Source of the DNA: a virus
Virus record (IMG/VR): IMGVR_UViG_3300034375_005223
Span: 1-20,341 of that record
Length of the DNA stretch: 20,341 bases
Reading direction: 5' to 3' (one strand)
Shown: positions 1-20,179 of the stretch, one piece after another
Layout: every line of letters starts with the position of its first letter
Position numbering within the stretch: the first letter of the stretch is position 1
The notes under the pieces: generated by a model
Database searches by the model: none
The model's input: only the letters and a program-made list of their open reading frames with translations
Told to the model about the DNA's origin: nothing
Position numbers and translations under genes: made by a program

Positions 1-97
1 TCAAAATACTTTTATGATTCACTCTGACAAGATCTTGACTATTGCTGACCCTAATAGTAAACTGAAGAGTAAGTATGAGAGTCTGGTGAAGGAATGA
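1..97 (+). CDS. 3' end of an upstream gene, unidentified
   Basis: This is an open frame entering from the left edge (codons from position 2) and ending at the TGA at 95-97. The visible tail ends in the residues KSKYESLVKE. Its stop overlaps the polymerase start as ATGA (94-97), so the two are probably translationally coupled. In T4-like phages the gene just upstream of gene 43 is usually a replication or regulatory gene such as regA or 62. I cannot tell which from 31 residues, so no name is given. Confidence 0.7.
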   Translation, partial: QNTFMIHSDKILTIADPNSKLKSKYESLVKE

Positions 98-1557
98 GGT
101 TCTACACTAATGTCCAGGTGGTTGGAAACAACTTCCTGGTTCGTGGTTTTGAAAATGGTAGAAGTTTTACTATCAAAGAAGAATACCAACCAACTCTCTA
201 TGTGAAATCAAAGAAAGAGAGCAAGTGGAAAACACTTGATGGTGAAAGTGTAGAACCCATTCAACCTGGGACAGTTAGGGACTGTAGGGAGTTCTATAAG
301 AAGTATGATGATGTAGATGGATTTCCAATTTATGGGAATGAAAGATATATCTACCAATACATTTCTGATAAGTATCCAGAAGAAGAGATCAAGTTTGACA
401 TCAAAAAGATCAACTTGGTCACTATGGACATTGAGGTTCAGGCAGAGGGGGGATTCCCTGATCCTGAGTCCTGCTCTGAGGAGATGCTGACCATCTCTAT
501 TCAGGACTACAGCACCAAGCAAATCACAACTTGGGGTAGGCATCCATATGTGCCTACACAGAAGAATGTAACCTATCACCACTACAGCGATGAGGTAGAG
601 ATGCTCAATGCTTTTCTCTACTGGTGGTCTAACAATACTCCTGATGTGGTTACAGGTTGGAATGTGAGACTGTATGATATTCCATATCTTTGTGGAAGGA
701 TCAGCAGGATTATGGGTGAGAAGAAGATGAAGCAACTCTCACCTTGGGGACTGGTCAACCAGGAACAAATTACTATTACAGGAAGAGAGTTTAATGTGTT
801 TGACATTGTTGGACTCACTACACTGGATTATCTTGATCTATACAAAAAGTTCACCTATGTGAATCGTGAGTCATATAGACTGGACTTTATTGCTGAGACT
901 GAACTGGGTCAGAAGAAGTTGGATCACAGTGAGTTTGAAACCTTCAGAGACTTCTACAGAGGTAACTGGAAGAAGTTTGTTGACTACAACATTATTGACG
1001 TGGAACTGGTTGACAGGTTGGAAGAGAAACTCAAACTGATTGAACTTGCTATTACCATGGCATATGATGCCAAGGTAAACTATGTGGATGTGATGTATCA
1101 GGTGAGGATGTGGGACACTATCATTTACAATTATCTGAAGAGGAGAAACATTGTGATTCCTCAAAAAGATAGGAGTGATAAGAGTGACAAGTTTGCTGGT
1201 GCTTATGTGAAAGAACCCACACCTGGTGTTTATGATTGGGTGGCATCCTTTGACCTTAACTCTCTGTATCCACACCTTATGATGCAGTACAACATCTCAC
1301 CAGAAACCCTGGTAGAAGAGAGGCACCCATCAGTCACAGTAAATAAGATTCTAGATGAATCTGTTACCTTTGAGATGTACAAGGACTATGCAGTCTGTGC
1401 CAATGGAGCAATGTATAGGAAGGATGTGAAGGGGTTCTTACCTGAACTGATGGAGAAAATGTATGCTGAGAGGACAGTCTTCAAAAAGAAGATGCTACAA
1501 TCAAAGCAGGCATTGGTTGATATTGAGAATGAAATCAAGCGCAGGAGGAAGAAGTAA
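94..1557 (+). CDS. 43A: DNA polymerase gp43, N-terminal part (split gene)
   Basis: This is the N-terminal half of a family B, T4-type replicative polymerase (487 aa). It carries the N-terminal domain and the 3'-5' proofreading exonuclease: Exo I MDIEV (D112, E114), Exo II GWNVRLYD (N190, D195), and Exo III YNIID (D302). It then enters the palm with motif A, FDLNSLYP (386-393, catalytic D387). It stops at TAA 1555-1557, about 50 residues after NGAMYRKD (437-444), within what aligns to the first fingers helix of RB69 gp43. The tail is strongly basic (KRRRKK). Motifs B and C are missing here and lie in the next gene. The two parts total 875 aa, close to T4 gp43 (898 aa), so little seems lost. 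The start ATG overlaps the upstream stop as ATGA. An intact exonuclease and motif A argue for a working subunit rather than a decayed gene. Confidence 0.95.
   Translation: MRFYTNVQVVGNNFLVRGFENGRSFTIKEEYQPTLYVKSKKESKWKTLDGESVEPIQPGTVRDCREFYKKYDDVDGFPIYGNERYIYQYISDKYPEEEIKFDIKKINLVTMDIEVQAEGGFPDPESCSEEMLTISIQDYSTKQITTWGRHPYVPTQKNVTYHHYSDEVEMLNAFLYWWSNNTPDVVTGWNVRLYDIPYLCGRISRIMGEKKMKQLSPWGLVNQEQITITGREFNVFDIVGLTTLDYLDLYKKFTYVNRESYRLDFIAETELGQKKLDHSEFETFRDFYRGNWKKFVDYNIIDVELVDRLEEKLKLIELAITMAYDAKVNYVDVMYQVRMWDTIIYNYLKRRNIVIPQKDRSDKSDKFAGAYVKEPTPGVYDWVASFDLNSLYPHLMMQYNISPETLVEERHPSVTVNKILDESVTFEMYKDYAVCANGAMYRKDVKGFLPELMEKMYAERTVFKKKMLQSKQALVDIENEIKRRRKK
1543..1548 (+). promoter_or_regulatory. 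Strong Shine-Dalgarno site for the second polymerase gene
   Basis: AGGAGG lies inside the last codons of the first polymerase gene, 8 nt before the ATG at 1557. It is a full consensus ribosome site, unlike the start of the following uvsX, which has none. It supports real independent initiation of 43B rather than a sequencing frameshift. Confidence 0.8.
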
Positions 1558-18111: not shown

Positions 18112-18582
18112 TTGGAAAAAGGTGAAGAACATCTTGAATATCCCAATCCCTGGACCTATTGTGGCAGGGTGTTTGACGGGAGCCTTATTGGGGACAACTA
18201 CGGCTTTGTTTACCTTATTACCTGTAAGGTCACCCAGAGAAAATATATCGGTAGAAAGTATTTCTGGCAAAAACGAAAGCCTAGATCTACAAATCAAACT
18301 AAAAAGCGGAGAAGAGTTACGTCTGAAAGCAACTGGCGTGACTACTATGGATCTAGTCCAGAGCTTAAAGAGGATGTTGCAAAGTATGGACGGGACTCTT
18401 TTACTAGAGAAATCCTATCCCTCCACAAAACTGTAGGCAAATGTAACTTTGAAGAGACCCGTCAACTCTTTCTAAATAATGTACTTACAGAGAGATTGAC
18501 AGAAGGGATCCCTGCCTACTACAATAGCAACATCCTGGGTCGTTACTATCGTAAGGATTATTTTGAGTCACCCATGCCTTGA
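18112..18582 (+). CDS. GIY-YIG family endonuclease
   Basis: This DNA endonuclease-like protein (156 aa) has the GIY-YIG fold signature: GFVYLI (31-36) and KYIGRKYF (44-51), then a basic stretch (KKRRR), and FEETR (113-117), where E114 or E115 may be the catalytic metal ligand. Such small nucleases in T4-like phages are either homing (Seg-like) or non-homing enzymes; no DNA-binding repeats are seen, so it may be a non-homing form. The frame has no ATG: a TAA at 18106 leaves TTG 18112 as the first usable start, with GTG 18169 as a later one that would still keep GFVYLI. No clear ribosome site is seen. Confidence 0.8.
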   Translation: MEKGEEHLEYPNPWTYCGRVFDGSLIGDNYGFVYLITCKVTQRKYIGRKYFWQKRKPRSTNQTKKRRRVTSESNWRDYYGSSPELKEDVAKYGRDSFTREILSLHKTVGKCNFEETRQLFLNNVLTERLTEGIPAYYNSNILGRYYRKDYFESPMP

Positions 18583-19205: not shown

Positions 19206-19579
19206 TTAAAAAAGTCATTAAAGGAATCAAGAAACTCAAGGGCGTTTTTATTCCAAAGAGTGAGTTTATTGAACCTAAAAAAATTAACAAAACAAAAGTT
19301 CAATCAGACTATATTGGTGTTCCAGCACCAGTAGTTCTGTCAGATGATTCTTGGTTTGGTGTTGCTACTAAGACTGAAAAGGCAATAGAGTATGTCAAGC
19401 AAAAGAATGAGGAACTCTATCAAAAACTTGCTGAAGAACCCCAATCCAAAGAGGTTGACAACATACACCAAATGATGTATGATAGAGTGACCCAATACTG
19501 GGGTACTTGGAAAGAAGAACTTTCTGATAGTCCTGGAGATTGGCAATCTGGAACTGGATACAATCAGTTCAGAGATTGA
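19202..19579 (+). CDS. Hypothetical protein, 125 aa
   Basis: The start is ATG 19202, which gives an ATGA overlap with the lysozyme gene; an in-frame ATG at 19196 is also possible. The N-terminus is a basic amphipathic helix (MIKKVIKGIKKLKGVF), which could lie on a membrane surface. The centre has an acidic helix (about 60-80), and the end is Trp/Gly-rich (YWGTWKEELSDSPGDW). Its pairing with the lysozyme hints at a lysis helper, but this is only context. Its stop overlaps the -35 box of the tRNA promoter. Confidence 0.7.
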   Translation: MIKKVIKGIKKLKGVFIPKSEFIEPKKINKTKVQSDYIGVPAPVVLSDDSWFGVATKTEKAIEYVKQKNEELYQKLAEEPQSKEVDNIHQMMYDRVTQYWGTWKEELSDSPGDWQSGTGYNQFRD

Positions 19580-19604
19580 CAGAGGTGGGTTTCCCCTCTA
19601 TAAT
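19576..19604 (+). promoter_or_regulatory. Consensus sigma70 promoter of the tRNA cluster
   Basis: TTGACA (19576-19581) and TATAAT (19599-19604) are both perfect and are separated by 17 nt. Transcription would begin near 19611, just before the first tRNA at 19618. The spacer itself is an inverted repeat: AGAGG (19581-19585) with CCTCT (19595-19599). Confidence 0.9.
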
Positions 19605-19617
19605 AAGGAAACCGCAA

Positions 19618-19691
19618 GACTCAATAGCTCAGCTGGATAGAGCAACTGCCTTCTAAGCAGTCGGTCGTAGGTTCGAATCCTACTTGAGTCG
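19618..19691 (+). tRNA. tRNA-Arg (UCU)
   Basis: The acceptor stem GACTCAA pairs with TTGAGTC (19684-19690); a D-arm GCTC/GAGC and a T-arm with GGTTCGAATCC are present. The anticodon loop gives TCT, reading AGA/AGG, the favoured Arg codons of this phage DNA. No CCA is encoded. Confidence 0.95.
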
Positions 19692-19712
19692 TTGAATACT
19701 TATTGTATTCAA
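19692..19712 (+). repeat. Hairpin in the Arg-Thr tRNA spacer
   Basis: TTGAATAC (19692-19699) pairs perfectly with GTATTCAA (19705-19712) around TTATT. It fills nearly the whole spacer. There is no T-run, so it is not an evident terminator; a processing or protective role is possible. Confidence 0.8.
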
Positions 19713-19715
19713 GTT

Positions 19716-19792
19716 GCCAAATTAGCTCAGTTGGATAGAGCAGTGCTTTTGTAAAGCAAAGGTCGTCAGTTCAAGTCTGTCATTTGGCTCCA
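19716..19792 (+). tRNA. tRNA-Thr (UGU), CCA encoded
   Basis: The acceptor GCCAAAT pairs with ATTTGGC (19782-19788); anticodon TGT sits in loop TTTGTAA; the top pair of the anticodon stem is a G-A mismatch. The discriminator T is followed by an encoded CCA (19790-19792), and the next tRNA begins at once. Confidence 0.93.
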
Positions 19793-19865
19793 GGGGAATT
19801 AGCTCAGTTGGTAGAGCACCTGCTTTGCAAGCAGGCTGTCAGGAGTTCGAGTCTCCTATTCTCCA
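19793..19865 (+). tRNA. tRNA-Ala (UGC)
   Basis: The acceptor GGGGAAT pairs with ATTCTCC (one G-T pair); the anticodon loop TTTGCAA gives TGC. It starts directly after the CCA of tRNA-Thr, with no spacer. No CCA follows its own discriminator A. Confidence 0.95.
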
Positions 19866-19866
19866 T

Positions 19867-19902
19867 GGGGTTAGTACACCTCCACCCACCAGTACTAACC
19901 CC
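19867..19902 (+). repeat. Perfect 11-bp hairpin in the Ala-Gly tRNA spacer
   Basis: GGGGTTAGTAC (19867-19877) pairs perfectly with GTACTAACCCC (19892-19902). The 14-nt loop, ACCTCCACCCACCA, contains ACCTCC, the anti-Shine-Dalgarno core of 16S rRNA. There is no T-run after it. It may be a processing structure or a small structured RNA. Confidence 0.85.
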
Positions 19903-19906
19903 TCCT

Positions 19907-19978
19907 GCGGAATTAGTTCAGTGGTAGAACGTCAGCCTTCCAAGCTGAATGTCAGGGGTTCGAATCCCCTATTCCGCT
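19907..19978 (+). tRNA. tRNA-Gly (UCC)
   Basis: The acceptor GCGGAAT pairs with ATTCCGC (19971-19977); the anticodon stem TCAGC/GCTGA carries loop CTTCCAA, giving TCC. The T-arm has GGGGTTCGAATCCCC. No CCA is encoded. Confidence 0.95.
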
Positions 19979-19997
19979 TGAGACTTAAATAGTCTCA
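19979..19997 (+). repeat. Hairpin in the Gly-Asn tRNA spacer
   Basis: TGAGACT (19979-19985) pairs perfectly with AGTCTCA (19991-19997) around TAAAT. This is the third spacer of the cluster with a perfect stem. Confidence 0.75.
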
Positions 19998-20006
19998 CAT
20001 ACACAA

Positions 20007-20078
20007 TGGCGTGTAGCTCAATGGCAGAGCAGGGAGCTGTTAACTCTCTGGTTGCAAGTTCGAGTCTTGCCACGCCAG
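20007..20078 (+). tRNA. tRNA-Asn (GUU)
   Basis: The acceptor TGGCGTG pairs with CACGCCA (20071-20077); D-arm GCTC/GAGC; anticodon loop CTGTTAA gives GTT; the T-arm GCAAGTTCGAGTCTTGC is complete. Discriminator G. Confidence 0.93.
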
Positions 20079-20082
20079 CCTT

Positions 20083-20154
20083 GCCCAAATAGCTCAGCGG
20101 TAGAGCACCTCCTTTACACGGAGATTGTCGGGGGTTCGATCCCCTCTTTGGGCA
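20083..20154 (+). tRNA. tRNA-Val (UAC)
   Basis: The acceptor GCCCAAA pairs with TTTGGGC (20147-20153); anticodon loop TTTACAC gives TAC; the T-arm GGGGTTCGATCCCC is clear. It is the last tRNA of the cluster, 25 nt before the next gene. Confidence 0.93.
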
Positions 20155-20179
20155 TTCCTATAAGGAGGACCATGTTCCA

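What the first reader, a model, noticed from the sequence alone, without database searches (positions are those of the whole stretch)
19692..19997. tRNA spacers filled by perfect hairpins
Three spacers (19692-19712, 19867-19902, 19979-19997) each hold a perfect stem of 8, 11 or 7 bp that takes up nearly all of the spacer, with different sequences. The remaining spacers are 0 and 4 nt. This regular pattern suggests a designed processing or anti-decay function, or remnants of former tRNAs, rather than chance.
Basis: partly seen in the sequence, partly recalled or inferred. Interest (0 to 1): 0.6.

Follow-up and report, generated by a model that had tools for sequence, protein, structure and literature searches.

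The report
Hairpins capping cyanophage tRNA ends
In this cyanobacterial virus, each gap between tRNA genes that is long enough to hold one is filled by an RNA hairpin that starts right where the preceding tRNA ends; the same rule, with ever-changing sequences, holds across many related phages and probably helps cut out and protect tRNAs that lack their own CCA tail.

Summary
Three perfect stems (8, 11 and 7 bp) fill the Arg-Thr, Ala-Gly and Gly-Asn spacers of a six-tRNA cluster in a T4-like cyanophage fragment (dinucleotide-shuffle p = 0.001, 0.0006 and 0.010). It is also one case of a wider rule. In 65 non-redundant cyanophage inter-tRNA spacers of 15-120 nt, 52 carry a stem of at least 5 bp starting 0-2 nt after the tRNA's last base (shuffles: mean 6.5, max 13). 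The start offset peaks sharply at 0-2. The hairpins follow CCA-less tRNAs (151/369) far more than CCA-encoding ones (5/37; p = 0.0007). They also occur when no tRNA follows, and are not enriched after tRNAs of two Synechococcus genomes (2/47). Stem mismatches favour G-U over A-C (47:18), one family covaries strongly, and orthologous positions hold unrelated hairpins, so the sense-strand RNA structure is what is kept. Terminators, tRNA remnants, promoters and RNase III sites fail as general explanations. My best reading is an RNA cap at the RNase Z cut: it keeps the trailer from mispairing with the tRNA and shields CCA-less precursors from exonucleases. The biochemical step is inferred, not shown. 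I found no description in the papers searched. Interest 0.5.

The parts
19576..19604 (+). Consensus sigma-70 promoter, TTGACA (19576-19581), 17 nt, TATAAT (19599-19604), ending 13 nt before tRNA-Arg; probable promoter of the cluster
   Evidence: 12 of 12 matches; near-identical promoter sequence ahead of the cluster in L006 and L014
19618..19691 (+). tRNA-Arg(tct), no encoded CCA, next base T
19692..19712 (+). Trailer hairpin 1: TTGAATAC-TTATT-GTATTCAA (8 bp, 5-nt loop), starts at the first base after the discriminator
   Evidence: identical in L002, L003, L005, L014; absent (spacer TT) in L006/L007
19716..19792 (+). tRNA-Thr(tgt) with encoded CCA, abutting tRNA-Ala (0-nt spacer)
19793..19865 (+). 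tRNA-Ala(tgc); last A is the discriminator, no CCA trailer encoded; next base T
19867..19902 (+). Trailer hairpin 2: GGGGTTAGTAC-ACCTCCACCCACCA-GTACTAACCCC (11 bp, 14-nt loop), starts at the second base after the discriminator
   Evidence: same hairpin between Ala and Gly in L095, L096, L098-L100, L102; diverged counterpart TGGGGTAGTGAAT...ATTCACTATCCC between Thr and Gly in L309
19907..19978 (+). tRNA-Gly(tcc), no encoded CCA, next base T
19979..19997 (+). Trailer hairpin 3: TGAGACT-TAAAT-AGTCTCA (7 bp, 5-nt loop), starts at the first base after the discriminator
   Evidence: conserved in L006/L007, G-U variant TGAGACTTAAATGGTCTCA in L098-L100, L102
20007..20078 (+). tRNA-Asn(gtt), followed by a 4-nt spacer (CCTT)
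20083..20154 (+). tRNA-Val(tac), last tRNA of the cluster held in this fragment

Best explanation
The three hairpins are RNA trailer caps of CCA-less tRNAs. The cluster is transcribed as one precursor from the promoter at 19576-19604. Host RNase P cuts each 5' end. RNase Z cuts just after the discriminator base, i.e. directly in front of the U that begins each hairpin spacer. The hairpin then does two things. It folds on itself, so the trailer cannot invade the neighbouring cloverleafs. It also removes single-stranded RNA next to the cut, so 3'-5' exonucleases cannot nibble into a tRNA whose CCA has still to be added, and maturation goes by the RNase Z route. Sequence does not matter, only a stem at this place. 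Shown here: the stems, their placement, their RNA-level conservation, the link to CCA-less tRNAs and the predicted fold protection. Inferred: the enzymes and the protection itself.
For: Placement: 52/65 non-redundant cyanophage spacers have a stem of at least 5 bp starting 0-2 nt after the tRNA (shuffles mean 6.5, max 13; at least 6 bp: 42, expected 1.4); the start of the longest stem peaks at offsets 0-2. Link to CCA: cyanophages 151/369 CCA-less against 5/37 CCA-encoding (p = 0.0007), ten other named phages 11/62 against 5/82 (p = 0.03). Present without a tRNA following: 98/279, expected 11, and whatever lies downstream, even an antisense frame. +1 T in 255/279 CCA-less tRNAs of that class and in 40/47 host CCA-less tRNAs, which show no hairpin excess (2/47, expected 0.8). 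RNA level: G-U 47 against A-C 18 (p = 0.0004), 29:11 without promoter cases; cUUCGg among the commonest short loops; covariation in a trailer family, 11 double-changed cells against 3.8 +/- 1.5, at most 3 in slid controls. Replacement: of 40 dissimilar Gly-tcc downstream sequences, 24 form stems of at least 5 bp with many unrelated sequences. Fold: acceptor-stem probability with native against shuffled spacers is 0.82 against 0.59 (upstream tRNA) and 0.84 against 0.62 (downstream). Literature: RNase Z cuts directly after the discriminator and CCA represses it (PMC7479834); cyanobacteria have RNase Z and no RNase T, and PNPase and RNase II are stopped by stable stems (PMC10989914); trailer structure as a block to 3'-5' exonucleases (PMC8549757).
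Against: More than half of the CCA-less cyanophage tRNAs with room downstream lack a stem of at least 6 bp (218 of 369), and many have 0-4 nt spacers, so the element is not obligatory. Host tRNAs do without it. An exonuclease block alone would tolerate a stem further downstream and does not explain the sharp 0-2 offset. Any self-paired spacer would score well in the folding test. No RNA or enzyme data exist for these phages here. Non-redundancy filtering does not fully correct for shared ancestry.
Confidence: 0.6

Rival explanations
1. 5'-end cap of the downstream RNA: after RNase Z cuts, the hairpin is at the new 5' end and protects the rest of the transcript from RNase E or RNase J, as known for 5' stem-loops of some mRNAs (own knowledge).
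For: The 0-2 nt offset is the geometry such a cap needs; CCA-encoding tRNAs, which have no defined cut at +1, lack it; host tRNAs lack it.
Against: The hairpin rate does not depend on what lies downstream: antisense frame next 35%, same-strand gene 23-45% (crude ORF calls). It persists where the spacer is itself a promoter for the next gene (27 of 42).
Confidence: 0.2
2. Promoter or operator palindromes: the spacers hold sigma-70 promoters whose -35 and spacer happen to be inverted repeats.
For: A subset is exactly this: TTGACA-N17-TATRNT starting at the tRNA 3' end, 42 of 369 CCA-less downstream regions, including most of the GACAATC family.
Against: None of the three window hairpins is a promoter (best 9 of 12 at hairpin 3; chance gives about one such match in the region). 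Promoters elsewhere in cyanophages show stems of at least 6 bp in only 7%, against 53% of those abutting a tRNA, so the stem follows the tRNA, not the promoter. Non-promoter hairpins are the majority.
Confidence: 0.04
3. RNase III processing sites that separate the tRNAs.
For: One cyanobacterial RNase III (A0061 of PCC 7002) takes part in tRNA and rRNA maturation (PMC10989914); hairpin 2 has 11 bp.
Against: Of 174 hairpins, 160 have stems of 10 bp or less, most 6-8 bp, below the roughly one helical turn that RNase III usually needs (own knowledge).
Confidence: 0.06
4. Transcription terminators or pause hairpins.
For: Hairpins directly after genes.
Against: 0 terminators in the region; only 6 of 150 hairpins are followed by a T run; arms have 41% GC; terminating inside the cluster would silence the downstream tRNAs.
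Confidence: 0.02
5. Remnants of deleted tRNA genes, or mobile palindromes that inserted at tRNA 3' ends with no function.
For: Hairpins are gained or lost cleanly between relatives (TT against 24 nt).
Against: No acceptor-arm match beyond chance; the three hairpins have unrelated sequences; covariation and the G-U bias show selection on the RNA; the CCA link and the fixed offset are unexplained.
Confidence: 0.08

Closest known systems
CCA-less pre-tRNA 3' trailers processed by RNase Z (B. subtilis, S. oligofermentans)
   Same: No CCA after the discriminator; U at +1; in S. oligofermentans some trailers carry a terminator structure said to prevent 3'-5' exonuclease attack (PMC7479834, PMC8549757)
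   Different: Here a stem of any sequence starts 0-2 nt after the tRNA, usually without a T run, inside multi-tRNA transcripts; host Synechococcus trailers lack this
T4 tRNA cluster
   Same: Phage tRNA array with very short spacers; some of its tRNAs (Ser, Pro, Gln) lack CCA by sequence
   Different: T4 spacers are short and show no hairpin abutting these tRNAs
5'-terminal stem-loop mRNA stabilisers (e.g. E. coli ompA leader; own knowledge)
   Same: Stem within a few nt of an RNA 5' end, sequence free
   Different: Here the stem follows a tRNA and its presence does not depend on the downstream gene
abiF-type antitoxin RNAs in cyanophages
   Same: Structured RNA in the same tRNA clusters of other cyanophages (reported for S-CREM1, PMC9964418)
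   Different: Conserved sequence and structure (RF03085), located 5' of tRNA-Arg, not a simple trailer stem; absent from this window's tRNA region

Membership tests
CCA-less tRNA trailer processed by RNase Z | No CCA directly after the discriminator | tested here: met
   Arg, Ala and Gly (the three tRNAs before the hairpins) lack encoded CCA; Thr, which has CCA, has no spacer
CCA-less tRNA trailer processed by RNase Z | U at +1, the 5' base seen on an RNase Z-released trailer | tested here: met
   T at 19692, 19866 and 19979; 255/279 in cyanophages
CCA-less tRNA trailer processed by RNase Z | Cleavage by RNase Z after the discriminator | not testable with these tools
   No RNA data
Intrinsic terminator | GC-rich stem followed by a T run | tested here: not met
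   0 found; 6 of 150 in relatives
sigma-70 promoter | TTGACA and TATAAT hexamers 16-18 nt apart within the spacer | tested here: not met
   None convincing in the three window spacers; met in a subset of relatives
RNase III substrate | Double strand of about 11 bp or more | tested here: not met
   8 and 7 bp in two of the three; 14 of 174 reach 11 bp
tRNA remnant | Acceptor-stem or tRNA-like sequence | tested here: not met
   8 shared 7-mers against 5.6 expected; no Rfam tRNA match confined to a spacer
Dispersed palindromic repeat (REP/BIME-like) | Copies of one sequence at several sites | tested here: not met
   Three unrelated stems; many unrelated stems after Gly-tcc

The most novel reading that the evidence does not exclude
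Phages have evolved a sequence-free structural element, a hairpin locked 0-2 nt behind the discriminator base, that is a standard part of CCA-less tRNA genes carried on long phage transcripts. It replaces the monocistronic layout of host tRNAs and steers these tRNAs to RNase Z maturation in a cell full of active nucleases. The weaker link to missing CCA in non-cyanophages suggests it arose repeatedly.
Probability: 0.4. Interest if true: 0.65.

Novelty: new variant of a known kind. Interest (0 to 1): 0.5.

Why it matters
How phages mature their own tRNAs from long transcripts in hosts whose tRNAs are mostly single genes is little studied. A simple structural rule that predicts where RNase Z cuts would improve annotation of phage tRNA arrays and of promoters hidden in them. 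It makes phage tRNA maturation directly testable in cultured Synechococcus-phage pairs, and offers a short, sequence-free design element for multi-tRNA transcripts.

Tried and rejected
tRNA remnants, terminators, RNase III, and promoters as the general cause. The GACAATC 33-mer family, first taken as pure RNA covariation, turned out to be mostly sigma-70 promoters that also form stems; its inner stem covaries only weakly, so I rely on the Thr-trailer family, whose members also tend to overlap promoters, and on non-promoter hairpins. Exact copies of hairpin 2 in L097/L101 lie in loci with no tRNA and are followed by a T run in L097, so they look like chance or terminators. An Rfam search of the spacers found no known family. 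The downstream-protection model was tested and not favoured.

Full report
What is there. The window is an IMG/VR virus fragment. Its genes, by their order and similarity (NrdA, NrdB, DNA primase; gp43-, UvsX- and gp41-like from reading the frames), match T4-like cyanomyoviruses such as RN05-S, S-B43 and S-T4. Six tRNA genes lie at 19618-20155, preceded by a perfect sigma-70 promoter at 19576-19604.

Survey. I collected cyanophage loci from IMG/VR by three routes (relatives of the ORF just upstream, relatives of NrdB, and DNA patterns for hairpin 2, tRNA-Gly and tRNA-Arg), nine named cyanophages and ten unrelated named phages, and ran ARAGORN on all. Cyanophage spacers are bimodal: 0-4 nt, or about 16 nt and longer. 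The long ones mostly begin T plus a stem. Of 65 non-redundant spacers, 52 have at least 5 bp starting at offset 0-2, against 6.5 in shuffles. The offset distribution is sharp at 0-2, and the 3' arm usually stops 3-8 nt before the next tRNA, leaving a short single strand there.

The element belongs to the tRNA end. Hairpins also follow cyanophage tRNAs with no tRNA within 120 nt (98/279, expected 11), but not CCA-encoding tRNAs in that position (3/32, expected 1.0). The link to missing CCA holds in cyanophages (p = 0.0007), in ten other named phages (p = 0.03), and in the other phages pooled with the tRNA-Arg set, which contains some cyanophages (p = 0.0002). Tests by Fisher on non-redundant sequences do not fully remove shared ancestry. 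Sixty tRNA genes of two Synechococcus genomes (WH7803, RCC307) share the +1 T but not the hairpin (2/47 CCA-less, expected 0.8).

RNA, not DNA. Mismatches inside stems are G-U 47 times and A-C 18 times in cyanophage CCA-less trailers (p = 0.0004), and 29:11 after removing promoter cases; controls are near 1:1 or reversed. The commonest short loops include cUUCGg. In the Thr-trailer family, 94% of cells pair, with 11 double changes against 3.8 expected and at most 3 in slid controls. After Gly-tcc, many unrelated hairpins occupy the same place.

Promoter overlap. Some trailers are also promoters (TTGACA-N17-TATRNT). Those abutting a tRNA form stems of at least 6 bp in 53% of cases, against 7% for promoters elsewhere. 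So the stem is demanded by the tRNA end even when the same bases serve as a -35 box. The window hairpins are not promoters.

Mechanism. RNase Z cuts directly after the discriminator and is repressed by CCA (PMC7479834). Cyanobacteria have RNase Z and no RNase T, and PNPase and RNase II are stopped by stable stems (PMC10989914). In S. oligofermentans the released trailer begins with U, and trailer structure is said to block 3'-5' exonucleases (PMC8549757). Partition-function folding shows that native spacers keep both neighbouring acceptor stems formed far better than shuffled spacers, though any self-paired spacer would help. The hairpin rate does not depend on the downstream gene, which favours a benefit to the upstream tRNA over protection of the downstream RNA. 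The enzymes and the protection itself remain inferred.

Limits. 'Cyanophage' for IMG/VR loci rests on how they were fetched, not on formal taxonomy. ARAGORN boundaries can be off by 1-2 nt. CCA status is by sequence. The ORF calls are crude. Ten paper searches in an open-access library found no description of this rule; that is not proof of novelty.

Noticed in passing
L045:3640-3676 (+), L178:4779-4815 (-); similar in L026, L029, L048, L076, L079, L136: abiF antitoxin-type RNA (Rfam RF03085 in L045 and L178; others by sequence pattern) just 5' of tRNA-Arg(tct) in several cyanophage tRNA clusters, behind a second conserved stem (GGTCCAAAC...GTAAGTCC). One cyanophage case is published (S-CREM1); a decoy against AbiF-type defence is conceivable.
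   Followed up: partly
L328 (S-SM2) between Gly and Asn tRNAs; L342 (Syn1) between Thr and Asn; L023, L072, L074, L083 between Asn and Val: A 130-150 nt sequence sits between tRNAs, partly annotated as hypothetical proteins in S-SM2 and Syn1; it looks like an undescribed structured RNA and has no Rfam hit at gathering threshold in the loci searched (L328, L342, L023, L072).
   Followed up: no
L034, L058, L075, L085, L091 and others, between tRNA-Arg and tRNA-Gly: Recurrent element GGGCA-[stem with a CCACC-rich loop]-TGTAAGACCC with a conserved internal loop; window hairpin 2 has a similar C-rich, G-free loop.
   Followed up: no
L045:5417-5668: Cyanobacterial-type tmRNA (RF01851) inside a cyanophage tRNA cluster.
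   Followed up: no
window 94-1557 and 1557-2723: DNA polymerase gp43 appears split into two overlapping frames (ATGA overlap); not checked against relatives.
   Followed up: no
window 18112-18582: Frame that reads like a GIY-YIG homing endonuclease, upstream of the tRNA cluster; GIY-YIG genes are annotated in the matching region of S-WAM2 and S-SCSM1.
   Followed up: no
L328, L342, L023, L127: wcaG RNA (RF01761), a known cyanophage cis-regulatory RNA, on the same loci as the tRNA clusters.
   Followed up: no
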